Assembly (NCBI RefSeq): GCF_002007215.1
Contig: NZ_MUHX01000032.1
Span: 1 to 33,334, forward strand
From: Pyramidobacter sp. C12-8
GTDB lineage: Bacteria; Synergistota; Synergistia; Synergistales; Dethiosulfovibrionaceae
Length of the DNA stretch: 33,334 nucleotides
Direction: 5' to 3'
Within the stretch, counting starts at the first letter, position 1; each line of letters starts with the position of its first letter. Positions 1 to 13,358 of the stretch are shown here, one piece after another. The position numbers and the translations under genes were made by a program. Under the pieces are notes generated by a model. It did no database searches. It was not told where the DNA came from and saw only the letters and a program-made list of their open reading frames with translations.

Positions 1-544
1 AACAGGCGCCAGTCACGATCCCCGTCGCATCGTCAATATAAGCGTGCAGCGTCGCACGCCCGTTCCCCCTGCCAAACCATTCAAACGACGTGGCGTCAGT
101 CTGCCACAACATCCCCGCGGCCACCTTCCGCGGTCGGGAACGGTGAAGCTTCGGCCGCCGCCGCACACTCTTCTTGCTCCTGATCCCCTCGTCCTTCAGA
201 ATGCGGACGACACTCGAACGACTGATCCCGATCCCCTCCCGTTCGTTCAGGCATTCCGCAAAGTGAGAGAAGTTGAAATCGTAATAGACCTCCTCATACG
301 CCTTCAGCACCGACTCCCGAACCTCATCTCCGATCCTGCGCCGAGACGTTCTGCCGCGGTTGCCGTGAACAAGTCCCGCCGCCCCTTGAGCGACGAACCT
401 CTTCTTGATCCTGATGATTTGCCGTTGACAGAGCCCCAGCTTTTCCGCCGCCTCCCTGTTCGTCATGCGTCCCTCGACAAGCGCTCCGATAATCCTGATA
501 CGATCCAGTTCCTTTTGTGACAATGTCATTCGCTCCTGTTTCAT
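1..544 (-). CDS. Transposase, ISNCY/IS1202-like, N-terminal part
   Basis: About 181 codons of a DNA transposase are present; the rest lies beyond the left edge. The N-terminus carries a helix-turn-helix (MTNREAAEKLGLCQRQ, about residues 28-43), followed by the VHGNRGR motif, which I associate with ISNCY/IS1202-group transposases. A second DNA-binding stretch follows. Near the cut end, QTDATSFEW contains what is probably the first catalytic Asp of the DDE triad. ATG at 544 lacks a clear ribosome site. A second in-frame ATG at 529 is preceded by CAGGAGCG and may be the real start. The reading frame has no stop in the visible part, so the element may be active, but the catalytic core cannot be checked here. 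Confidence 0.8.
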   Translation of the reverse strand, partial: MKQERMTLSQKELDRIRIIGALVEGRMTNREAAEKLGLCQRQIIRIKKRFVAQGAAGLVHGNRGRTSRRRIGDEVRESVLKAYEEVYYDFNFSHFAECLNEREGIGISRSSVVRILKDEGIRSKKSVRRRPKLHRSRPRKVAAGMLWQTDATSFEWFGRGNGRATLHAYIDDATGIVTGAC

Positions 545-1965: not shown

Positions 1966-3021
1966 TCATTTGAGAAAGAACGGCGGATAACCGTCCAGAT
2001 CGCCGCGCAGAAAACGGGCAAGAAGCATCGCCTGGACGTAGGGGAGCAAGCCGAGGGGGATTTTTTCCTGCAAATAGGGGTGAGTAATTTCTTCTTGTTT
2101 GCGATTTTGCCAATTTTGCAGGAAGGTTTCTTTGCGGGGCGTTTCGTTGAGGAGAACGGCTCCGTTTTCCCGGACGGTAAAGTCGGCGGCAGCGATTTTT
2201 CTGAGGTTGACGAGGCTGAGGACAAAGCGGTCGACGAGGTAGGCGCGTAGTTCTTCCATGAGGTCGAGGGCCAGGCTGGGGCGACCGGGACGGTCGCGGT
2301 GGAGAAAGCCGACACAGGGGTCGAGGCCGACGGTTTCGAGGGCGCTGGTTATTTCCGAGGCGAGCAATGAATAACCGAAGGAGAGGAGGGCGTTGATTCG
2401 GTCCGTCGGAGGACGACGGTTTCGGCCGTGGAAGTAGAATTGTTCTTTTTCGCCGAGGATCATGTGGTCGAAACAGCTGAAGTATTCTCCGGCGCTGTCG
2501 CCTTCGATTCCGCGGATGGTGTCGAGATCCGGTTTTGCATGGACGCGGATTTTCTGGAGCTGGACGGCGAGGTTTCTGATCGGCTGTTCGTAGGGTTCTG
2601 ATTCTTTACCGTCGCGGGCGGCGCGCTGGAGAACGGTACGGCTGTTGGCGATTTTGGCGGCGATGATGGCTCGCGCGATTTGGGCCGACTGAATGGGATC
2701 GTCGGCCTTTCGATATTGCAAACGGCGCAGCAGGACGTTGCCATGTACGGGAGCAGTCAGTTTGGCGATGAAGCGGCCGTAGACGCTCATGAAGGAGACG
2801 GCGACGCCGTGATCGGCGCACAGTTGCATGGCTCCGGGGCTGAGGCTGACGCGGCCGAAGCAGACGATGTTTTCGAACAGGTGGATGGGGAATTTGCGCA
2901 GAGTCCGCCCTTCGCTACGGATGTCGACGGTTTCCCCGTCGCGGGCGACGTAGGCGCCATCAATGTTGAGGTAGAGGGTATTCAGCAGGTGTCTCATGCA
3001 GTGTCTCATGCAGTGTCTCAT
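1966..3021 (-). CDS. cas1: Cas1 (type I-C), CRISPR integrase
   Basis: Cas1 is the metal-dependent integrase that joins new spacers to the leader-proximal repeat. With the start chosen here it is 351 residues, slightly long. The active-site Glu is in the IEGDSAGEYF region, His in GFLHRDRPG and the acidic residue in ALDLMEELR, all in the expected order. I chose ATG at 3021 because GAGGAG lies 7 bases upstream. In-frame ATGs follow at 3009 and 2997, and the one at 2997 (MRHLLNTLYLN) matches the family's usual N-terminus. The extra MRHC units come from a 12-bp tandem repeat shared with the end of cas4, which overlaps this gene by 62 bases. A TTG at 3036 is also possible. Confidence 0.96.
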   Translation of the reverse strand: MRHCMRHCMRHLLNTLYLNIDGAYVARDGETVDIRSEGRTLRKFPIHLFENIVCFGRVSLSPGAMQLCADHGVAVSFMSVYGRFIAKLTAPVHGNVLLRRLQYRKADDPIQSAQIARAIIAAKIANSRTVLQRAARDGKESEPYEQPIRNLAVQLQKIRVHAKPDLDTIRGIEGDSAGEYFSCFDHMILGEKEQFYFHGRNRRPPTDRINALLSFGYSLLASEITSALETVGLDPCVGFLHRDRPGRPSLALDLMEELRAYLVDRFVLSLVNLRKIAAADFTVRENGAVLLNETPRKETFLQNWQNRKQEEITHPYLQEKIPLGLLPYVQAMLLARFLRGDLDGYPPFFLK

Positions 3022-3670
3022 GCAGTGTCTCCTCAATATGTTTTTTCAGGTAGTTTTCCACGGTGCGGCTCATTTTCGGCTGGCAGATGTCGCTGATGGA
3101 ACAGCTCTTGCAGTGGGGCAAAAGCACAGCCGGCGGGATGACGCCAGCGTCGAGGAGTTGATGAGCCTGGACGCAGGCGTTTTCCATCTCGGCGCGAAGC
3201 TGAGGCGTGAAGGCGACTTCTTCACGGCGGCGCGGGGTTCCGTAAAAGAGGGCGCCTGTTTCGATGCGGCAGCCGAGCATTTCTTCGAGGCAGGCGGCCT
3301 GAGCGCAGAGTTGGATGCGGTCGCAGTCTTTTGCCTTAGGGCGGCCGTGTTTGTACTCTACGGGGTAAGGGCGCCATGTTCCTTTCTGTCCCGGCAGAAG
3401 CACGCCGGCGTCGTCCTGATGGAACTCGACGACGTCGGCCACGCCGGAGATCTTCAGGCGCTCGCAGCGCAGGGGCAGGCCGCGGGCGACGTGCAGGCCG
3501 GGGCGGTTCTCGCTCTCGTCGGAATGGGCTTTTTCGTGAAGCAGGCGGCCCTGCGCCGTGAAGATGTTTTCCTGCCACTGCCGCTCGATGTGGATCAGCG
3601 CCCACTGGCGCGGACAGAACAACAGATGCTGAAGTCCGGAGATCAAAATGTACTCGTCGGAGAGAGGCAT
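2960..3670 (-). CDS. cas4: Cas4 (type I-C), prespacer-trimming Fe-S nuclease
   Basis: At 236 residues, this is a RecB-like nuclease with a 4Fe-4S cluster that works with Cas1-Cas2 to trim prespacers and select PAM-bearing ends. The first cluster cysteine is C19 in FCPRQW, and the other three are in HCKSCSISDICQP near the C-terminus. The nuclease core shows GVADVVEF and PVEYKHGRPK, giving the conserved Asp, Glu and Lys. The extreme C-terminus is unusual: a run of HETL units encoded by the tandem repeat, ending in PAEYPLPQH. It begins one base after the stop of cas7c and overlaps cas1 by 62 bases, which suggests tight translational coupling of the adaptation genes. Confidence 0.95.
   Translation of the reverse strand: MPLSDEYILISGLQHLLFCPRQWALIHIERQWQENIFTAQGRLLHEKAHSDESENRPGLHVARGLPLRCERLKISGVADVVEFHQDDAGVLLPGQKGTWRPYPVEYKHGRPKAKDCDRIQLCAQAACLEEMLGCRIETGALFYGTPRRREEVAFTPQLRAEMENACVQAHQLLDAGVIPPAVLLPHCKSCSISDICQPKMSRTVENYLKKHIEETLHETLHETLHETPAEYPLPQH
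2989..3031. repeat. 12-bp tandem repeat across the cas4/cas1 overlap
   Basis: Three full copies and one partial copy of GTGTCTCATGCA (plus strand) occupy the overlap of cas4 and cas1. In the cas4 frame each unit encodes ETLH. In the cas1 frame each encodes MRHC and so supplies an in-frame ATG, at 3021, 3009 and 2997. Because the unit length is a multiple of three, gain or loss of copies keeps both genes in frame. Confidence 0.97.
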
Positions 3671-3671
3671 G

Positions 3672-4538
3672 TCACTCCACCGCGCTGTATTCCTCTGGGT
3701 TCAAACCATCAAGCGGTTTCACTTCGACTCTGTACTCCTTCCAGCTCGTCGCATCCTCAGGAGCCGTGACCGACAGGCTTCTGTGCACCTGCGCGGAACT
3801 ATATTGCCCTGTCTTGCAGTTGTGCTTCCACCAATAGACGCGCTTCACTTCCATGCTGCCGTCCGGACGAGCTGACGACGCGTCGTTTTCAAAGAGCGTG
3901 ATCAGCGCTTTATGAAGCAGTTCCGCATCTTCCTCGGAAAAACCCGTCTTTTCGGCCAGCTGACAGTTGATGCTGCCGTAGAAAACATAGACACTGTGTG
4001 CGACACGGTGCTTCATACCCATGGTATCCGGCGATTTGGAACCGTCCTTGGTCGGCTCTCCATTGACGCTTTTCGTGATCTGCATGCTGTCGATATTAAC
4101 CGGCAAAACGGTCATGGCCGATTGAACGGTTACGGGCCCGCGCACGCCGACGGAAACGCCTTTGCTCTTTTCTTCGTCGCCGCTTTTGTTGCCGAAGGCG
4201 AACACCTGCCCGAAACTTCTTACATCGAGCCACTTCTTACAGGCCTCGCGCGCATAGCGCTCGCGATCTTTCCTGTCGTCTTCGCTCAACTCTTTCTCCG
4301 CGCGTTCTTTCAGACTGTTATAACCGTCGTCCGTGCGTTCAGCCGCCTGAACGAAAATTCTTTGTCCAAGGTCCTGCCAGCGGTTGCGGATTTTGCGTTT
4401 CAGACAGACGTCAGAAATCTCGCCATATCCGTCGTAATTCTCGCGGGGGCGATTGCCATTCAGCGGATCGCCATTGGGGTTGGCATTATTCACAGATAGT
4501 ATCACGGCAAAATCGATTTTGTTCTGCAAAACTGACAT
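3672..4538 (-). CDS. cas7c: Cas7c (Csd2), type I-C Cascade backbone
   Basis: The 288-residue protein has the Csd2/Csh2-family start (DFAVILSVNNANPNGDP), an RRM-fold Cas7. Several copies line up along the crRNA to form the helical backbone of the I-C effector. VRSFGQVFAF and GVRGPVTVQ, followed by TKSVNGEPTKDGSKSPDTMG, match conserved segments of this family. The start ATG has an excellent ribosome site, GGAGGAGATAACG, immediately upstream. The same 13 bases precede the internal cas11c start. It lies 21 bases after the end of cas8c and one base before cas4. Confidence 0.97.
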   Translation of the reverse strand: MSVLQNKIDFAVILSVNNANPNGDPLNGNRPRENYDGYGEISDVCLKRKIRNRWQDLGQRIFVQAAERTDDGYNSLKERAEKELSEDDRKDRERYAREACKKWLDVRSFGQVFAFGNKSGDEEKSKGVSVGVRGPVTVQSAMTVLPVNIDSMQITKSVNGEPTKDGSKSPDTMGMKHRVAHSVYVFYGSINCQLAEKTGFSEEDAELLHKALITLFENDASSARPDGSMEVKRVYWWKHNCKTGQYSSAQVHRSLSVTAPEDATSWKEYRVEVKPLDGLNPEEYSAVE

Positions 4539-4559
4539 CGTTATCTCCTCCGTTGTTAT

Positions 4560-4997
4560 TTATTCTCCAGAATCTTGCTGCTCAGCGGCTTTTTTCTCGC
4601 GTTCCTTTTGCGCTTTCGCTTCTGCGGCAGCTTTCATATCCTGCTGGAATTTTTCCAACTGGCAGCGGTACCCGAGGATAAAAAGTTCCGTCAGAGGTTT
4701 GTCCAAATCATCTGTCCATTCAGACAAGCCCGAAACGATCTCATTTATTTCCGCTATAAGTCTTGCTTTTAGTCCGAATCTTGAGCTCTGTAACTTTCCA
4801 GTGTACGGCTGCAGCTGCGATTCCAAAATCTGCCATGTTTTCATGGGACGCTTGGAGAACTGATGCATCAAACGCTCTGCATTGGTCTGCCTGTTCTCTC
4901 CGTCGAGCTTGTTCACATAACTTTCGATATTCTCAGCATACGCCAGCAAGCGGCCGAACTGATAACTGCGATCCGGATAATCGGGTTGAAGCGCCAC
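4560..4997 (-). CDS. cas11c: Cas11c small subunit from an internal start in cas8c
   Basis: An in-frame GTG at 4997 is preceded by AAAGGAGGAGATAACG, a near-perfect ribosome site whose last 13 bases are identical to those before the cas7c ATG. Translation from it gives 145 residues (starting V/M-ALQPDYPDRSYQFGR), which is the alpha-helical C-terminal region of Cas8c. It is established for I-C systems that this region is also made as an independent small subunit, Cas11c, lining the belly of Cascade next to the Cas7 backbone. The start is my reading from the sequence. Length and position agree with the known family. There is no other cas11 gene in this operon. Confidence 0.85.
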   Translation of the reverse strand: MALQPDYPDRSYQFGRLLAYAENIESYVNKLDGENRQTNAERLMHQFSKRPMKTWQILESQLQPYTGKLQSSRFGLKARLIAEINEIVSGLSEWTDDLDKPLTELFILGYRCQLEKFQQDMKAAAEAKAQKEREKKAAEQQDSGE

Positions 4998-6635
4998 CGT
5001 TATCTCCTCCTTTTGTCCTCGATCGTTATAGTATTTTCTTACAAGCGCGCAGGTGACCGTCATAATCATTTCTCGATCGGAGTCTTCCTTTACAGCCGCC
5101 GGATTTGAAGCACGCCTGAACAGCGTCTTGACAAGATCCCCCGGTAACGGCCGGCTTTCCAAAATGCAGGGGATCAGCCGGTCCATTGTGGCATGAAGCA
5201 GATGGTCGGGGACGGGGTGTTGGGGCTTAGGCCTGGGATCGGCCGGAGAAATCTGGTATGCCGCCTTGATGATATCCAGAGGAGCGGGGGCTCCGAAAAA
5301 GGCATGAGTTTTCTTTTCGTCTTTCTTGTCGTGCTTATACGCATGAAGCCATTGGCAGGTATTGTGCCAGTTTTCGATTCGACTCAAGAAATCAGAACCA
5401 GATATCTCCTGATAATAGGTTACGGCCAACCGACCGTCTGTAGCTGAATTCAGCCCCAGCACGACAACTTGCGAAGCCCCATCCAGCTCTTTTTTGTATC
5501 CCTGCATGACAAGAATCAGACGCTTCGCAAATCCCTCACGGGTATCAATATCGCCGTCAAAAGCCGAATTATCCGTTGGATCCTCTGTCAAAAGGTCTGC
5601 GCTGTCATCGTCAAAGGCCGGGATTCTCTGGTTTTTCGTTCCCCAGATGACATAAATCTGCCCTTTCTCATGCCAACTCTGTTTCTGTACCAACCATCGC
5701 AGAGCGTTAAAAGCTTTTTGCGAAGTCTCATACCCCACACACATAGCCTGCTTGGACGTAGCGAAGCGGCCTCGATAGGTAAAGTTTTCAGAATCATTTG
5801 AGGAGATCAGTTTCGACTTTGAGTTCGTAAATGGGATACGACAAAGATGTTTCAGCCCGGGGACAACTTCCCGCCCCTGTACATAACATAAGTCCGTACT
5901 GCGTTCAGCCTCCAATTTTTCCAGATAGTATTCTTTATAGGACTGCCAGAAATCCGGCACCTCCCAAATTTTGTCTCTCACTTCTCCCGGGTAATGAACG
6001 CAAATTCGGACAAAAGCCTCAGATACATCAGGGACGATTTTTCTATTGTAAAGAGGATATTTTACGATTTCTTTACGAGGAACCTGCACAGCCACAATAT
6101 GCTCCGGAATACTGCCACTGAGGATATTCCGTGCAATGAGGTCCGATACCAGAGTATTCCTTTTTAAATAAGCCACGATTACGTCAAGATGCTTTTTGAC
6201 AATTCCATTACATCGTGCCGCCAGCTCATTCAGGCGTTGCATATAAAGTGTACGGGCTTCATGGAATTCCTGGCGGCTTTCTTCATTCTTCTTACGAAGT
6301 TTATCTGATGGTTCCTCGCTGCTTTTGAGCCAAAGGTAATCATAGTAGTCACCAGCCATATACTTAAGCTTGTCGAAGAGCACATGCGCGCATGCACCGC
6401 TCGTTCGATTCTGAGAATCTTCCGTACATGGAATGAACGTGCTCTGTTCTTCGTGTCCTTCTATTACTCGTGCATTGATAATCTTTCCTCCGGCATCAAG
6501 CGTCAGTTCGACCTGAACGGATTGAATCATCTGCCCTACAGGTGCAAGCATTGGAGCATCGACAATCTCTCGATTCGATTTAAGTACCTCCGCACAGTTG
6601 TCGTAGGTATCATACAGTTTTTGCAACCAACTCAT
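4560..6635 (-). CDS. cas8c: Cas8c (Csd1), type I-C Cascade large subunit
   Basis: The large subunit of I-C Cascade recognises the PAM and helps recruit Cas3. The protein is 691 residues when started at MSWLQKLYDTYDNC, the typical Csd1 N-terminus. ATG at 6635 overlaps the cas5c stop in an ATGA, so the pair is translationally coupled. Csd1 landmarks include GLKHLCRIPF, NFTYRGRF and the C-terminal QFGRLLAYAE helix. The last 30 or so residues are an unusually Lys/Glu/Ala-rich tail. The final 145 codons also form a separately translated cas11c. A longer reading from further upstream is open but would run deep into cas5c and is rejected. Confidence 0.97.
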   Translation of the reverse strand: MSWLQKLYDTYDNCAEVLKSNREIVDAPMLAPVGQMIQSVQVELTLDAGGKIINARVIEGHEEQSTFIPCTEDSQNRTSGACAHVLFDKLKYMAGDYYDYLWLKSSEEPSDKLRKKNEESRQEFHEARTLYMQRLNELAARCNGIVKKHLDVIVAYLKRNTLVSDLIARNILSGSIPEHIVAVQVPRKEIVKYPLYNRKIVPDVSEAFVRICVHYPGEVRDKIWEVPDFWQSYKEYYLEKLEAERSTDLCYVQGREVVPGLKHLCRIPFTNSKSKLISSNDSENFTYRGRFATSKQAMCVGYETSQKAFNALRWLVQKQSWHEKGQIYVIWGTKNQRIPAFDDDSADLLTEDPTDNSAFDGDIDTREGFAKRLILVMQGYKKELDGASQVVVLGLNSATDGRLAVTYYQEISGSDFLSRIENWHNTCQWLHAYKHDKKDEKKTHAFFGAPAPLDIIKAAYQISPADPRPKPQHPVPDHLLHATMDRLIPCILESRPLPGDLVKTLFRRASNPAAVKEDSDREMIMTVTCALVRKYYNDRGQKEEITVALQPDYPDRSYQFGRLLAYAENIESYVNKLDGENRQTNAERLMHQFSKRPMKTWQILESQLQPYTGKLQSSRFGLKARLIAEINEIVSGLSEWTDDLDKPLTELFILGYRCQLEKFQQDMKAAAEAKAQKEREKKAAEQQDSGE
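5001..5013 (-). promoter_or_regulatory. Internal ribosome binding site for cas11c
   Basis: On the minus strand this reads AAAGGAGGAGATA, ending 3 bases before the GTG at 4997. It includes AGGAGG complementary to the 16S tail at good spacing. The 13 bases GGAGGAGATAACG are shared exactly with the cas7c translation start region (4539-4551). Confidence 0.85.
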
Positions 6636-7366
6636 GCTTGTATCACATCCCTGCACAGATCTTCCACAGGTTGGCAGTTGCGCCTCAACATAAAGGATTC
6701 TTTCTCCCAATCACACAGTTCTCTGACCTCGGTGCATTGATATGGCAACATAAAGTTAATAATTCCATACGCCATTGCAGGACGCCAAAGTCTCAGTTCC
6801 AGCTTTTCCCTGCCAGTATCAGAAGGATAATTGAATCCATGATACATCATGCCAAAGCCCAGTTCAGGCGTCTGATCGTAAGCCCCTCTTCCTTCTCCAA
6901 ACGTACACGGTTCGACATATCCCTGGCATTCACGCGTGCCGAGAAAGATATCCCGCCGTCCGCCTCGTTTGATCATTCGCTGCGCGATCTGAAAATGTTT
7001 GTCTTCGTTGCGATCCGGAGCAAGGTCGGGCATGTTCGGATTCCATTCGAAATGGGCTTCGACCTGATAACGGACTTTGTACAGATACGTGTAGTACGAA
7101 AGCGTGTTCGCAGCCGCATTCGGTCCATGCGCATACAATATCGGCTTAACTCCTTTCGTCTGCATTCTGATGGGATTCATCACGCGCACTCGGTCGATGT
7201 ACCAGATGAACGTCGGCTTCCAATAGATGCTCTCCGTAATGCCGACAAGCGCCTGATACGTCGGGATCGGGTAGGTGCTTTTCTCGCCTCCGACCCGCGT
7301 CAGGGGATCGCTGAACAGCGCATACTCCCCCCAGACTTGATAAGCAACCCTGTTGGCTTTTTGCAT
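6632..7366 (-). CDS. cas5c: Cas5c (Cas5d), pre-crRNA endonuclease and handle-binding subunit
   Basis: The 244-residue Cas5 carries the family start VWGEYALFSDPLTRVGGEKSTYPIPT. In I-C systems there is no Cas6; Cas5c cleaves the repeat hairpin and stays on the crRNA 5' handle. The helix after YQALVGITESIYWKPTF and the YLYKVRYQVEAHFEWN strand match the Cas5d fold, and the catalytic Tyr/Lys/His cluster is expected around these segments. The start ATG has AAGGAGG 7 bases upstream. It lies 30 bases after cas3, and its stop overlaps the cas8c start by 4 bases. Confidence 0.96.
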   Translation of the reverse strand: MQKANRVAYQVWGEYALFSDPLTRVGGEKSTYPIPTYQALVGITESIYWKPTFIWYIDRVRVMNPIRMQTKGVKPILYAHGPNAAANTLSYYTYLYKVRYQVEAHFEWNPNMPDLAPDRNEDKHFQIAQRMIKRGGRRDIFLGTRECQGYVEPCTFGEGRGAYDQTPELGFGMMYHGFNYPSDTGREKLELRLWRPAMAYGIINFMLPYQCTEVRELCDWEKESFMLRRNCQPVEDLCRDVIQA

Positions 7367-7396
7367 GCGTTCGCCTCCTTGTTCTTTTTTGCCGAT

Positions 7397-9874
7397 TCAG
7401 CAAATATACTTGGCCGGATCGACGCCGCCCTCAAAAACTATACCATATTCGTCATCATAAGACTCTTCGTCCAGCAAACAATAAATTCCCAAGTTCTCAA
7501 AGAAACGCAGTTTGTGGTCTTTTTCCAGTTTCCTCAGGCCGTCCGGATAGACACTGACCGAATACCGCTGCAACTCGCGAAAGAGCGTCTTTTTATCAAG
7601 ATAATCCGAAGCGGAAAGCAGCTGCCGCTGCAATTCGATCCCTTTGCCGTACGGGACAAGGATCCCCGTCGTGTTCTCGTCGATGACGCGAAACTCCCTG
7701 CCAGCTGTGCGAAACGCCTGGTGCAGGATTCCATGGTGCGCCCTTTCGTGCCTGCTTTCATATCCTACCAGCGCTTTTCTGTTCGCCGCGAGGTAATCGA
7801 AAAGCGTCCGTCCGGCGTCATGAGGCGCAGGATAGTCCATCGATCCGCGCTGCTCATGGTAATAGTAACGATAATACGCGCGAAGCGTTTCTTCAGAAAA
7901 GTAATCCTGCACGGGAAAAAACGACATATCGGAAAGAACGAGGGTCATCGCATCCTGCGCCCTGCGCAGATCGGGCAGCATGGCAAGACCGGTCTCTTGG
8001 TAACGGATAAAATAGACATAGCCGCGCTCCACAAACTTGTTCCGGTTGCAGCGGCCGGACGCCTGCGTCAAACTGTCCAGCCCTGTCTTGGAACGGATCA
8101 CCGCGTCGAAAGAAATATCGACGCCGGCCTCGATCAGATTGGTGCTGACGCAAATCACTGCTTTATGCTGAGCCAGGAGCGAATTCATCTCGGTGATCTT
8201 CGCCAGACGGTGAGCGCCGCACATGTTGGTGCTCAGATGGAAGAGAGCGACGCCGGCGCGGCCTTTCGCCTTCAGCTGCGCGTGAACTTCTTTCACCGCT
8301 TTCTTCGTATTGAGAACGATCAGGACGCTTTTGACCTCACGGGGAAGTTGAAGAACGAATTCGGAAAGAGTTTCTGCCGTATAAGGTTCTTCCTGTGTCT
8401 TATCAATGATCTGAATGCGATCAAAGACGGGGAAACGTTTTCTGACGTCCCGAACCAGATCGGCGGGTTCCGAAAGGCGCAGCGGACGGGCGATTTCTTC
8501 CAAAGCGGGCTGAGTCGCCGAACAGAGGACCGCCGTGCAGCCGCAAAAGCCGGCAAGGAAATTCATCGCCAGATTGAACATGCTGATACACTTGACGGGA
8601 ATGCTCTGCACTTCGTCGAAAATCAGCACCGAATTGCACAGCTGGTGCATGCGGCGCACGCACTGCCCGCGGCCGGAAAAAAGGGCGTCGAGGAACTGGA
8701 CCTGAGAGGTGAGAATGAGCGGGATATCCCAACGCTCCGCGAACGTGTCCAGCTGGTCTTCTTTTTCGCGCTGCTGTTTCTCGTTTTCGTTTTCATCCTT
8801 GCCGTAGCTGATAAGATTCGAGTGATGCTCAAGAAGGATGTCGCCGCGGCCGAACGTCTCGCGCAAAATCTGCGCTGTCTGATCGATAATCGTCGTGAAA
8901 GGCGCCACATAAAATACGTGATCTTTTCCAAACTTTCGTGCCAGATACAGAGCGCTTCTCATTACAGCTAACGTCTTGCCGCCGCCGGTGACGACATTGA
9001 GACGGTAAATGCCGGACGGTTCCCGCATCTTCTTCACCGATTCCAGGCATTCATCGGAGATCTGACGGCGCGCCGTGTTTATCGGAGAATCGGGAAAACC
9101 GTCAAGGCGTTTTTCAAGTTTTACCGCCAGTTCCCCCCAAAGCTTCGGATCCGTTGTGTACGTCGCCGCCTCAAGACGATTTTCCCAGCAGGCCGAAGCG
9201 TACCTGTCGCCGTCGCAAAGGCAGGAGAACGCCATTCGCGTCAGCAGACCCTTGAAAAATTCCCGTTTTTCCAAGCGGCGCTGCAATATTTTTCGTTTTT
9301 CTCCAGAGGAACGGTTTTCTTGTCTGACGTCTTCTGGATAAACGTCGGCATTGCAGCGTTCCGTAAAAACTTTCATTATCGTTCGCAGTTCTTCGGCAGC
9401 CGACTCGAGCAGTTTACGGATATCGTCTTGCGGAACAACCCCTTGCTGAAATCGCGCGAGCGCTTCCGCTTGAACCGCGTCGGGAGGCTCTTGAAGACGC
9501 TCTTCATAGGAAGCCGCCCCGTCGGGTTCGATCACGTCAGAAAGTCCGCTGTGGTGGCCCCAAACAACCAGCTCGGCAATCTCGGCCGCATATTGCTCAT
9601 ACGATGTTTCCGAAAATTCCTGCGCCGTCCGGCGGATCAGTTTTGCCCCCGTCGGCGCGTGAGGAATCATTTCATCCCGTTCATCATTCAGCAGATATCG
9701 CTGCCATTGTTCGGAACTCTTTCCCGCGTCATGAACGAGCCCCACCAGACGTCCCAAAGATGGTATGCCGATTTTTCGACAGTTTTGCTCGCATAAGTCT
9801 GCAACCAGCCGAACATGATCTGCAAGAGCTTCTCTCCGGTCTGATCCGTCACGGGCTTTTCGGGAATAAAGCAT
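7397..9874 (-). CDS. cas3: Cas3 (type I-C), HD nuclease-helicase
   Basis: The 825-residue Cas3 is recruited to Cascade R-loops, unwinds DNA and degrades the non-target strand. The N-terminal HD nuclease shows H20, HD at 48-49 in LVHDAGKSS, and a later GHHSG. The SF2 helicase follows, with Walker A TGGGKT (Lys about 300), DEVQ about residue 420 and motif III SATQPAL. The C-terminal RecA lobe has NLIEAGVDISFD and QASGRCNR. The start ATG has GAGGTG upstream. It is the first gene of the I-C operon. The 123 bases before it hold no clear promoter or terminator, so co-transcription with the upstream UPF0340 gene is possible. Confidence 0.97.
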   Translation of the reverse strand: MLYSRKARDGSDRREALADHVRLVADLCEQNCRKIGIPSLGRLVGLVHDAGKSSEQWQRYLLNDERDEMIPHAPTGAKLIRRTAQEFSETSYEQYAAEIAELVVWGHHSGLSDVIEPDGAASYEERLQEPPDAVQAEALARFQQGVVPQDDIRKLLESAAEELRTIMKVFTERCNADVYPEDVRQENRSSGEKRKILQRRLEKREFFKGLLTRMAFSCLCDGDRYASACWENRLEAATYTTDPKLWGELAVKLEKRLDGFPDSPINTARRQISDECLESVKKMREPSGIYRLNVVTGGGKTLAVMRSALYLARKFGKDHVFYVAPFTTIIDQTAQILRETFGRGDILLEHHSNLISYGKDENENEKQQREKEDQLDTFAERWDIPLILTSQVQFLDALFSGRGQCVRRMHQLCNSVLIFDEVQSIPVKCISMFNLAMNFLAGFCGCTAVLCSATQPALEEIARPLRLSEPADLVRDVRKRFPVFDRIQIIDKTQEEPYTAETLSEFVLQLPREVKSVLIVLNTKKAVKEVHAQLKAKGRAGVALFHLSTNMCGAHRLAKITEMNSLLAQHKAVICVSTNLIEAGVDISFDAVIRSKTGLDSLTQASGRCNRNKFVERGYVYFIRYQETGLAMLPDLRRAQDAMTLVLSDMSFFPVQDYFSEETLRAYYRYYYHEQRGSMDYPAPHDAGRTLFDYLAANRKALVGYESRHERAHHGILHQAFRTAGREFRVIDENTTGILVPYGKGIELQRQLLSASDYLDKKTLFRELQRYSVSVYPDGLRKLEKDHKLRFFENLGIYCLLDEESYDDEYGIVFEGGVDPAKYIC

Positions 9875-9997
9875 TTTTTCACCTCTTCATCCGCAGATTT
9901 GTGTGCTTTACAAGAACCACAAAAGCGAGGCCCACCAATAAGCCTTGGCGGTACACCCTTTGTTCTTTTCGCTTTCCATAGTGGTTTTTACTTGAGC

Positions 9998-10567
9998 TTA
10001 CCGCTTGATATCGCCGCCGGAGAGCGCGTCGTCGTAGACGGCCCGCGCGCCGCCGATGAACTTGGGGCGCGTGCGCGCGCAGACCAGGTTGGCCGCTCCG
10101 ATCTTCTTCACGGAGACGCGCACGGGCACGGCCACGTCGCGCAAGTGCATGCCGATCAGCGTATCGCCGATGTCCATGCCTGCGGCGGCGCGAAGGTGTT
10201 CGACGGCGGCGGGGCATTCGCAGTTTTCGTAGACGGTCGTCGCGAACGCACCGCCGGCGTGCAGCTGCGGCACGACGTTGCAGATTTCCGCGCCGGGCAG
10301 CAGCGCCGCCCTTTCCACGATCAGGGCGCGGTTGAGGTGCTCGCAGCACTGCGCCGCCAAAAAGAGCCCGCGCTCGCGCAACGCCGGCATCACGCCCTCG
10401 TAAACGGCCTTGGCGATCTCCGCGTTCGACCCTTTGCCGATGCGAAAACCGCCGATCTCGCTGGTGGAACAGCCGACCACGAAAATTTCGCCGGGTTCCG
10501 TGCGCGCGACGGCCAGCAGTTCGCCGACAGCCTGTGCCGATAGAACCCTGATTTCTTCATAGGACAT
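9998..10567 (-). CDS. UPF0340/TIGR01440 family protein (YwlG-like)
   Basis: At 189 residues this is a full-length member of the UPF0340 (DUF436, TIGR01440) family, typified by Bacillus YwlG, whose biochemical role is not settled. Conserved features are GEIFVVGCSTSEIGG, RIGKGSNAEIAKAVYEG, LAAQCCEHLNRALIVER and a C-terminal KFIGGARAVYDD. The fold is thought to be similar to nucleoside-binding proteins. There is no signal peptide or membrane segment. The start ATG has GGGAGG about 9 bases upstream, and a TAGAAT-type -10 lies at 10612-10617 without a good -35. It reads towards the I-C operon, 123 bases from cas3. Confidence 0.93.
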   Translation of the reverse strand: MSYEEIRVLSAQAVGELLAVARTEPGEIFVVGCSTSEIGGFRIGKGSNAEIAKAVYEGVMPALRERGLFLAAQCCEHLNRALIVERAALLPGAEICNVVPQLHAGGAFATTVYENCECPAAVEHLRAAAGMDIGDTLIGMHLRDVAVPVRVSVKKIGAANLVCARTRPKFIGGARAVYDDALSGGDIKR

Positions 10568-10629
10568 CGTTCAGGACCTCCCTTTTTTGGTTGGAGCGTT
10601 CACTGTTTCTCATTCTAGCACTTCGCGTT

Positions 10630-10663
10630 CCGCCGCGATGTTCCACGTGGAACATCGCGGCGG
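10630..10663. other. parS-like centromere site within a perfect 34-bp palindrome
   Basis: The central 16 bases (10639-10654) read TGTTCCACGTGGAACA. This fits the ParB/Spo0J binding site parS (consensus TGTTnCACGTGnAACA) and equals the variant known from pseudomonads. Symmetry extends to 34 bases with no mismatch through flanking CCGCCGCGA/TCGCGGCGG arms. It lies between two divergent genes and is not followed by a T-run in either direction, so a terminator reading is unlikely. Chromosomal parS sites cluster near the replication origin, which hints at an origin-proximal location. No parA or parB is present in the window. Confidence 0.85.
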
Positions 10664-10733
10664 CCAAACCGCCGCTGCGCCGCTGTGATACAATCAGTTC
10701 GGAGCGTTTTTGGGAAGGACGAGTCAGAAGACC

Positions 10734-11612
10734 ATGCTGAAAAAACTGTTGCTGCTCTGTGCCGCCGCGCTGACGTTGGCCGTCAACGAAGGTCCCTTCG
10801 CGGCAGACCGCGGTCTGGCGGCGTTGAAAGACGGCGGGCGGAATCCGCACGATCGTCCGCTCGAATCGTTGCGGGGCATGCCGACTGTATCCGAAAAAGA
10901 AGGCTCTGCCGAACCGCATGAGCGCCTGCGGGCCACCGATGTGCGCGGCGATTACGACAGCGACGCCGTTTTCGCCAACTTTCGCGAAGTTCGCGGCGGC
11001 CGCCTGAGGCGCGGTTCTCTGTACCGCTCCAGCATTCCCTCGAGCACGGAGCGCCCGCGCGCGCCCTACGCCGACCAGCTGGCGCGAGAAGCCGGCATCC
11101 GCACCGTGCTGAATCTGGCCAACTCGCCCGAGCGTCTGAAGAAGAACATGGAAAGCCCCGCCTGCCGGTCGCCGTATTATCGCATGCTCTGGCGCGGCGG
11201 CAACGTGATCGCCCGCGCCTTGCCCGCCGCGCCGGAGCACGCGACCTTTCGCGCCGGTCTGGCCGAAGAACTGCGCTTCATGACGAAGCGCCCCGCCCCG
11301 TATCTGGTCCACTGCGCCGAGGGCAAGGACCGCGCCGGCTTTGTCAGCTTTCTGCTGGCCGCGTTGCTGGACGCTTCCTTGGACGAATTGAAGGACGACT
11401 ACGGCCAAAGCTTCGTCAACTATTATCATTTGAAACGCGGCGAGCCCCGTTACGTCACGCACGTGGACGACGGCATCGAATCCTTTTGCCGTGCCATTGC
11501 CTGGACTCCGAAAGAGCCGCTTCGCCGGGGCGCTGAGCGTTATCTGCGCAGCATCGGCCTCACCGTCGCCGAGATCGAAACGCTGAAACGCCGCCTGGCG
11601 CACGACGGCTGA
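10734..11612 (+). CDS. Secreted tyrosine/dual-specificity phosphatase (Y_phosphatase3-like)
   Basis: The 292-residue protein has an N-terminal signal peptide (MLKKLLLLCAAALTLAV) and a cysteine-phosphatase domain of the Y_phosphatase3 type. The N-terminal core reads FREVRGGRLRRGSLYRSS and TVLNLANS, and the P-loop is HCAEGKDRAG with the nucleophilic Cys at about 194. Family members hydrolyse phosphotyrosine or phosphoinositides, and the true substrate is unknown here. The signal peptide suggests export. I chose ATG at 10734 because the signal peptide starts there. A TTG at 10710 would add 8 residues. It is divergent from the UPF0340 gene across the parS-like palindrome. Confidence 0.9.
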   Translation: MLKKLLLLCAAALTLAVNEGPFAADRGLAALKDGGRNPHDRPLESLRGMPTVSEKEGSAEPHERLRATDVRGDYDSDAVFANFREVRGGRLRRGSLYRSSIPSSTERPRAPYADQLAREAGIRTVLNLANSPERLKKNMESPACRSPYYRMLWRGGNVIARALPAAPEHATFRAGLAEELRFMTKRPAPYLVHCAEGKDRAGFVSFLLAALLDASLDELKDDYGQSFVNYYHLKRGEPRYVTHVDDGIESFCRAIAWTPKEPLRRGAERYLRSIGLTVAEIETLKRRLAHDG

Positions 11613-11694
11613 GAGCGAATTTCGTTTGCGGAACAGGGGGCGCTGTTTTACCCGTCGCGTACCATCGGCGCATCACACCGCAGGAGGTGTTGGC

Positions 11695-12216
11695 ATGAAT
11701 TCGAAGCACGCGCGCCTGCTTGCTGCGGCAATTCGTTATGACCGCGGCGACGCCCGGCGCATCCAGCATTTCGTCAAGGTCCACGATCTGGCCGCGGCGA
11801 TCGGCGCGCTGGAAGGGCTGGACGAGGAGACGCAGTTCATTCTCGAGACGGCGGCCATTCTCCACGACATCGGCATCCATCAGGCCGAAGCCAAGCACGG
11901 CAACGGCCACGGCACGTATCAGGAACGGGAGGGCCCCGGCGTCGCCGAGGCGATCTTGCGCGAACTGGGCGGCTACAGCGAAGCGCAGATCGAGCGCGTC
12001 AAATATCTGATCGCCCATCATCACACCTACAGCGACATCGATGGCGTCGATTACCAGATCCTCGTCGAGGCCGACTTTCTCGTCAACCTTTTCGAAAGCC
12101 CCGATCGCTACGGTCCCGCCGCAAAGGTCAGCGAACGCATCTTCAGGACGGCCGCCGGAAAGCGCCTTCTCGACGACATGTTCGTCGCCGGCGCTTACCA
12201 TCCCCTCACGTCCTGA
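11695..12216 (+). CDS. HD-domain phosphohydrolase-like protein
   Basis: The 173-residue cytoplasmic protein is built around one HD domain. The first metal His is in IQHFVKVH (25 or 30), the HD pair is at 57-58 in AAILHDIGIH, and AHHHTYSD supplies further ligands, with a later Asp in LVEADFLVN. The family hydrolyses phosphate esters of nucleotides or second messengers, and the substrate cannot be told from sequence. A strong ribosome site, AGGAGGTG, precedes ATG at 11695. It lies 82 bases after the phosphatase on the same strand and is followed by a clear terminator, so the two probably form a short unit. Confidence 0.9.
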   Translation: MNSKHARLLAAAIRYDRGDARRIQHFVKVHDLAAAIGALEGLDEETQFILETAAILHDIGIHQAEAKHGNGHGTYQEREGPGVAEAILRELGGYSEAQIERVKYLIAHHHTYSDIDGVDYQILVEADFLVNLFESPDRYGPAAKVSERIFRTAAGKRLLDDMFVAGAYHPLTS

Positions 12217-12227
12217 AAGATTTTCAT

Positions 12228-12282
12228 AAACGAATCGCGGCAGTCCGCCGGAAAAGATCCGACGGACTGCCGCGATTCGTTT
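12228..12282. terminator. Bidirectional terminator
   Basis: A perfect 20-bp inverted repeat (AAACGAATCGCGGCAGTCCG and its complement, 12228-12247 and 12263-12282) is flanked by A and T runs, with a 15-base loop. It lies between convergent genes, the HD protein (+) and the substrate-binding protein (-), and can end both transcripts. Confidence 0.92.
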
Positions 12283-12290
12283 TTCAACGG

Positions 12291-13358
12291 TTATTTCTGC
12301 AGAACCGAGGCGCTTCGTACCGTGTCCTGCGAGTCTTCCAGCCGATCGCTCCGCGCCACTTCGCTGGTCCAGCGGTCGATCAGGCGCAGGCGATTCTGGC
12401 TTTTCCACGGCACGCTGCACTGGAGCAGCCTGATCGAATTCAGATCGAGCAGCTTGTTGAGCTCCCGCAGCTCAGGGCGAGCGGGAAGGTAACACGGCTT
12501 CAGCTCCATACGGCTGCGTGCGAAATCCGGCGACGCCAGCCACTGCAGCAGATACTTCGCCTCCTCGGGGTACGCCGCGCCGTCGAGCAGCGCGCAGCCG
12601 TCCACCGCATACGTCACGCCCTCCTTGGGAAAAACGATTTCCACGGGATAACCTTCCAGCTTCAGGCTCATCGCGTCCACGTAATAGAACACGCCCGCCG
12701 CCGCCTGTCCCAAGGCGACGGGCGTGGCGCCGCCGACGCCGTTTCCGGCGTATGCGCGCACGTTTTCCGCCAGCTTCTTCTGGTACTCGAAAGCCTCTCT
12801 CTCGCCGTAGATGCGCACGAGCGAATAGATTTGTTCCGAGGCCGTCGCCGACGCGCGGGGGTCACCCATCTGCAGCGCCCCGCGATACGCAGGGTCAAGC
12901 AGATCCTGCCAGGAATCGGGCATCCTCAGCCCGTTTTTCTCGATAAAATTCCTGTTGACGAGAAAACACAACGGCGTCACGCCGATGCCGAACCAACGAT
13001 TGTCAGGATCGCGATATCCGACCGGCATCGCTTTGGCCGCTTCGGGAACGTACCGGGCCAGCGCGCCTTCGCGTTTGGCGGCATCGTAAATGTCGGCCGG
13101 GCCGCCAATGATCAGGTCGGCCTGCGGACACACCTTTTCGGCGATGACGCGCCGCAGCATCTCGCCCGACGAGAGCCGTGAAAAGTTGACCTGCAAACCG
13201 GTATAATCGGTAAAGCGTTGAAACAGGACCGCTGCATCCCTTTCCGGGATCGTCGTGTACACGCGGATCACCGGCGGCGCGGCAAACTTCCGATACAGCC
13301 ATAATCCCGCCGCCACGGTCAGCACGGCTGCAAGAGCAAACACACTTCTTCTGCGCAC
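12291..13358 (-). CDS. ABC transporter substrate-binding protein, Fe3+/thiamine type
   Basis: The 355-residue exported binding protein belongs to the SBP family that includes Fe3+ and thiamine/polyamine binders. An N-terminal hydrophobic segment (SVFALAAVLTVAAGLWLY) follows positive charges and looks more like an uncleaved anchor or signal. The mature part starts VIRVYTTIPERDAAVLFQRF, a typical first strand. ADLIIGGPADIYDAA and IGVTPLCFLVNRNF are conserved hinge regions, and SVPWKSQNRLRLIDRW is near the end. GTG at 13358 has AGGGGGGA upstream; GTG at 13376 is an alternative. No permease or ATPase lies beside it. A TATAAT-type -10 sits at 13445-13450 with a weak -35. Confidence 0.88.
   Translation of the reverse strand: MRRRSVFALAAVLTVAAGLWLYRKFAAPPVIRVYTTIPERDAAVLFQRFTDYTGLQVNFSRLSSGEMLRRVIAEKVCPQADLIIGGPADIYDAAKREGALARYVPEAAKAMPVGYRDPDNRWFGIGVTPLCFLVNRNFIEKNGLRMPDSWQDLLDPAYRGALQMGDPRASATASEQIYSLVRIYGEREAFEYQKKLAENVRAYAGNGVGGATPVALGQAAAGVFYYVDAMSLKLEGYPVEIVFPKEGVTYAVDGCALLDGAAYPEEAKYLLQWLASPDFARSRMELKPCYLPARPELRELNKLLDLNSIRLLQCSVPWKSQNRLRLIDRWTSEVARSDRLEDSQDTVRSASVLQK

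What the first reader, a model, noticed from the sequence alone, without database searches (positions are those of the whole stretch)
4560..5013. Hidden cas11c gene inside cas8c, with a ribosome site copied from cas7c
The I-C operon has no separate small-subunit gene. Inside cas8c, an in-frame GTG at 4997 is preceded by AAAGGAGGAGATAACG. The 13 bases GGAGGAGATAACG are identical to those before the cas7c ATG, which would set similar translation of backbone and small subunit. The 145-residue product is the helical Cas8c C-terminus, which is known in other I-C systems to be made separately as Cas11c. Standard annotation would miss it.
Basis: partly seen in the sequence, partly recalled or inferred. 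Interest (0 to 1): 0.72.

Follow-up and report, generated by a model that had tools for sequence, protein, structure and literature searches.

The report
Internal Cas11c start inside cas8c
A bacterial CRISPR operon very probably makes a second, shorter protein (the small subunit Cas11c) from a start site inside its cas8c gene, as is already known for this CRISPR subtype, and the site is kept in all 122 related genes compared here.

Summary
On the minus strand, GTG at 4997-4995 is in frame with cas8c and preceded by AAAGGAGGAGATAACG (4998-5013). It opens a 145-residue C-terminal product. The 13-mer GGAGGAGATAACG recurs before the cas7c ATG (4538) and nowhere else in the genome.

The main interpretation is strongly supported. 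The GTG aligns exactly with the Desulfovibrio vulgaris residue that begins the 124-aa Cas11c seen in type I-C Cascade structures. In 122 Cas8c homologues, the homologous codon is ATG, GTG or TTG in 116; the other six have a start within -6..+2 codons. Where the residue is valine, the codon is GTG in 51 of 52, against about 30% elsewhere in the same genes. Only two alignment columns show >90% start codons with strong ribosome sites: the true cas8c start and this one. The AlphaFold model (pLDDT 93) matches solved Cas11c chains.

"Copied from cas7c" is not supported: the identity is confined to one genus, and elsewhere the two leaders are no more alike than unrelated pairs. Internal translation of Cas11c has been published since 2020, so this is a new member of a known kind. 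Translation in this organism is inferred, not shown.

The parts
4560..4997 (-). cas11c: internal in-frame ORF, GTG start, 145 aa, shares the cas8c stop
4998..5013 (-). AAAGGAGGAGATAACG: internal Shine-Dalgarno and spacer of cas11c; the 13-mer is 4998-5010
   Evidence: dG -11.6, strongest in the gene
4560..6635 (-). cas8c, 691 aa, ATG overlapping the cas5c stop
   Evidence: TIGR01863, 300.6 bits; PF09709
4539..4551 (-). GGAGGAGATAACG: identical 13-mer in the cas7c leader
3672..4538 (-). cas7c, 288 aa
   Evidence: TIGR02589
6632..7366 (-). cas5c, 244 aa
   Evidence: TIGR01876
7397..9874 (-). cas3, 825 aa
   Evidence: TIGR01587 and TIGR01596
2960..3670 (-). cas4, 236 aa
   Evidence: TIGR00372
1966..2997 (-). 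cas1c; the true start may be one of several in-frame ATGs in the 12-bp tandem repeat
   Evidence: TIGR03640
1666..1956 (-). cas2, 96 aa
   Evidence: TIGR01573
663..1440 (.). CRISPR array, 12 full repeats GTTTCAATTCACGCGCTCCTCGCGGAGCGCGAC

Best explanation
Ribosomes start twice on the cas8c message. They start at ATG 6635, next to the cas5c stop, to make Cas8c. They start again at the internal GTG 4997, behind a strong Shine-Dalgarno site, to make the 145-residue helical Cas11c small subunit. By analogy with D. vulgaris, extra Cas11c copies stack beside the Cas8c C-terminal domain along the Cas7 backbone and support the displaced DNA strand during target recognition. Shown here: the site, its homology to the proven start, its conservation at the codon level, and the predicted fold. 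Inferred: actual translation, assembly and role in this organism.
For: Strongest ribosome site in the gene. Position equals the D. vulgaris Cas11c start: 124 aa to the stop in L124, and PDB 7kha_K is 124 aa. Start codon at the homologous column in 116 of 122 homologues; the other six have a start within -6..+2 codons. GTG for Val in 51 of 52, against 29.7% elsewhere in the same genes. Mean dG -10.9, against a median of -2.5 for the 15 columns rich in start codons. SD stronger than synonymous recodings (-10.9 vs -6.2, Wilcoxon 1.6e-20). The codon switches among ATG/GTG/TTG repeatedly on the tree while remaining a start. Profile hits solved Cas11c at 1e-28; model pLDDT 93.4; best Foldseek hits are I-C Cas11c and Cas8c chains. 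No other cas11c-like sequence in the genome apart from the two cas8c genes. Published precedent: PMC7684278, PMC11899642.
Against: No direct evidence of translation in this organism. GTG is usually a weaker start than ATG. The synonymous test is weak for any single gene (window P 0.17); its force comes from the set, whose members are related (74 clusters at 70% identity).
Confidence: 0.95

Rival explanations
1. The C-terminal domain is only part of Cas8c. The GGAGG-like stretch and start codon are by-products of a conserved protein motif, and no separate small subunit is made.
For: KEE and KEG type residues recur just before the site, and such codons easily contain AAGGAGG. For the window alone synonymous recoding gives an equal or stronger SD in 17% of draws.
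Against: Val at the site is GTG in 51 of 52 genes. 115 of 116 Met/Val/Leu residues at the site are start codons, against at most 65% (median 23%) at other Met/Val/Leu columns. The peptide before the site varies in sequence and length while the SD stays. D. vulgaris Cas11c is seen as a separate chain (PMC7684278).
Confidence: 0.03
2. The cas11c ribosome site is a recent copy of the cas7c leader (or the reverse), kept to match the supply of the two proteins.
For: 13 of 13 identity at identical spacing, unique in the genome, kept in G116 in both places. At most one of about 12,000 cross-operon leader pairs outside the genus reaches 12 of 13, and none 13.
Against: Noticed after the fact; absent from all other operons; no excess similarity of the two leaders elsewhere. 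The flanks outside the 13-mer differ. SD strengths and start codons differ.
Confidence: 0.08
3. The internal site mainly keeps ribosomes loaded on the message so that cas7c, about 20 bases after the shared stop, is translated; the small protein itself is incidental.
For: Ribosomes from both starts end at 4560, 21 bases before the cas7c ATG, so coupling is possible.
Against: Cas11c is a structural subunit in D. vulgaris (PMC7684278), and type I-C Cascade is reported not to form without it (Tan 2022, cited in PMC11899642). cas7c has its own strong SD here.
Confidence: 0.02

Closest known systems
[quoted passage not shown] PMC7684278)
   Same: In-frame internal GTG at the same alignment column, SD upstream, shared cas8c stop, helical C-terminal domain.
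   Different: About 24% identity. The window product is 21 residues longer (145 vs 124) with a charged helical tail.
Cas11 of the I-C Cascade in PDB 8g9s_H (Neisseria lactamica by my recollection; internal cas11 in that species stated in PMC10865793)
   Same: Same domain and fold (profile 1.7e-25; Foldseek probability 1.00).
   Different: Distant sequence (about 22% identity in the structural alignment).
Cas11b and Cas11d made inside cas8b and cas10d (PMC11899642, citing McBride 2020)
   Same: Small subunit made by internal initiation in the large-subunit gene.
   Different: Other CRISPR subtypes and other large subunits.

Membership tests
Cas11c (type I-C internal small subunit) | In-frame internal start at the position homologous to the proven D. 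vulgaris start | tested here: met
   exact column match; 124 aa to the stop in L124, as in 7kha_K
Cas11c (type I-C internal small subunit) | Ribosome-binding site directly upstream | tested here: met
   dG -11.6, strongest in the gene; conserved
Cas11c (type I-C internal small subunit) | Helical bundle fold of known Cas11c | tested here: met
   Model pLDDT 93.4; Foldseek 8dex_J TMt 0.80, 7kha_K TMt 0.70
Cas11c (type I-C internal small subunit) | No separate small-subunit gene | tested here: met
   Operon read; genome profile search finds only the two cas8c genes
Cas11c (type I-C internal small subunit) | Made as a separate protein and present in Cascade | not testable with these tools
   Needs ribosome profiling or mass spectrometry
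CRISPR-Cas type I-C | cas3, cas5c, cas8c, cas7c, cas4, cas1c, cas2 next to an array | tested here: met
   All seven genes matched NCBIfam; array

The most novel reading that the evidence does not exclude
In this genus the ribosome sites of cas11c and cas7c became identical by a local copying event and are kept so, fixing the relative supply of small subunit and backbone.
Probability: 0.08. Interest if true: 0.35.

Novelty: new member of a known kind. Interest (0 to 1): 0.2.

Why it matters
It indicates that this I-C system, from a divergent branch of Cas8c, makes its small subunit by internal initiation, so anyone cloning or recoding the operon must keep the internal site or add cas11c separately. 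The comparison also shows that the internal start is nearly as conserved as the gene's own start, so cas11c could be annotated automatically from cas8c.

Tried and rejected
A single-sequence scan of genome contigs found nothing; an alignment query then gave 80 loci. Viral contigs gave no relatives with A3 and three distant loci with A2; no phage record matched. The McBride 2020 paper is not held, so it is cited only through PMC7684278 and PMC11899642. My first automatic choice of the cas7c start picked a wrong codon in the window and was redone. General leader-sharing between cas11c and cas7c was tested and rejected.

Full report
Observation. The minus strand of the window carries a complete type I-C operon: cas3, cas5c, cas8c, cas7c, cas4, cas1, cas2 and a 12-repeat array. 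cas8c runs from ATG 6635 to the TAA at 4562-4560 (691 aa). The GTG at 4997 is in frame and is preceded by AAAGGAGGAGATAACG. It gives 145 aa to the common stop. Of 35 in-frame start codons inside cas8c it has by far the best anti-Shine-Dalgarno pairing (-11.6 kcal/mol, next -5.8), and it is the best of 98 start codons in all three frames of that strand. The 13-mer GGAGGAGATAACG before it and before cas7c is real and occurs only these two times in the genome.

Homology to a proven Cas11c. The 145-aa product matches the D. vulgaris Cas11c chain of PDB 7kha from the second residue on. In the D. vulgaris DP4 gene (L124) the homologous codon is also GTG, with GGAGGTG upstream, and lies exactly 124 codons before the stop, the length of chain 7kha_K. 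PMC7684278 describes that subunit as residues 489-612 of Cas8c made from an internal ribosome site, with two copies per complex beside seven Cas7. A profile of 71 C-terminal domains hits the solved Cas11c chains at 1e-28. The AlphaFold model has mean pLDDT 93.4 and is all helical; its 13 best Foldseek matches are all I-C Cas11c chains or Cas8c chains that contain the domain.

Conservation. I collected 122 Cas8c sequences from the same phylum, from other bacteria and one archaeal MAG, and from plasmids and viral contigs. At the homologous column 116 have ATG (61), GTG (51) or TTG (4). Five of the rest have a start one or two codons away with dG -9.5 to -12.3. The last, L033, has AAGGAGG and an ATG six codons upstream. 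All 115 measurable sites at the column have dG of -5.3 or lower, median -11.6. Among alignment columns filled in at least 100 sequences only two exceed 90% start codons, the true cas8c start (99%) and this one (95%), with mean dG -10.4 and -10.9; the median of the 15 columns rich in start codons is -2.5.

The protein sequence alone does not explain this. Valine at the site is coded GTG in 51 of 52 genes, against 29.7% elsewhere in those genes. In full-length genes 115 of 116 Met/Val/Leu residues at the site are start codons, while other Met/Val/Leu columns reach at most 65%, median 23%. The observed SD is stronger than the mean of synonymous recodings in 98% of genes (mean -10.9 vs -6.2, Wilcoxon 1.6e-20), although for one gene alone the test is weak (window P 0.17). 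The set collapses to 74 clusters at 70% identity, 68 of which have a start codon at the exact column. By parsimony the codon class changes about 13 times on the tree, while start versus non-start changes about twice.

The shared 13-mer. It is present in the same two places in the same-genus genome G116, and the same-species G118 stretch (L032) reads the same at both. In the 48%-identical L034 the two leaders differ (AAGGAGAAGGTATCA and AAGGAGGAACATAA). Over 108 other operons the cas11c and cas7c leaders agree at 5.05 of 13 positions, and leaders from different operons at 4.98. So there is no general link. The exact match is rare by chance (outside the genus none of about 12,000 cross pairs reaches 13) but was picked after the fact. 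The internal copy is constrained coding sequence, so the direction 'copied from cas7c' is not supported. Equal output is not expected either: pairing energies and start codons differ, and the known stoichiometry is 7 Cas7 to 2 Cas11c.

Expression logic (inference). In the window's species cas8c overlaps the cas5c stop (ATGA) and has a weak site (-5.8), while cas11c (-11.6) and cas7c (-9.5) have strong ones. This would favour more Cas11c and Cas7 than Cas8c. The weak cas8c site is not general: in G116 it is GGGAGG (-11.1), and across the set the cas8c median is -11.2.

Verdict. This is very probably a genuine cas11c made by internal initiation, a known arrangement for type I-C (PMC7684278, PMC11899642, and PMC10865793 for Neisseria lactamica). 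It is a new member of a known kind; translation in this organism remains to be shown by experiment.

Noticed in passing
window 2996-3036 (minus strand), cas4/cas1 junction: A 12-bp tandem repeat GAGACACTGCAT, in frame for both the cas4 tail and the cas1 start, with 3 copies here, 2 in a same-species genome (L032) and no such tandem in a same-genus genome (L040). Each copy adds an extra in-frame ATG for cas1, so strains differ in the Cas1 N-terminus or in the distance to its ribosome site.
   Followed up: partly
L039 (G000:C174:80000-98000), 3150-12319: The same genome has a second, diverged type I-C effector operon (cas8c by family match, with neighbours sized like cas3, cas5 and cas7) and a 42-repeat array. 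The only cas1c in the genome is in the window. Both arrays are followed by a similar stretch (CGACAGTGGTAC), so one adaptation module may serve both. Its cas8c also has the internal Cas11c start (ATG behind AAAGGAG).
   Followed up: partly
window 6636-6653: The cas8c ribosome site is weakened (GGGATG, -5.8) relative to the same-genus G116 (GGGAGG, -11.1), which would lower Cas8c relative to Cas11c.
   Followed up: partly
window 1-540: Minus-strand ORF that looks like an IS-type transposase or integrase end beside the CRISPR array; read by eye only.
   Followed up: no
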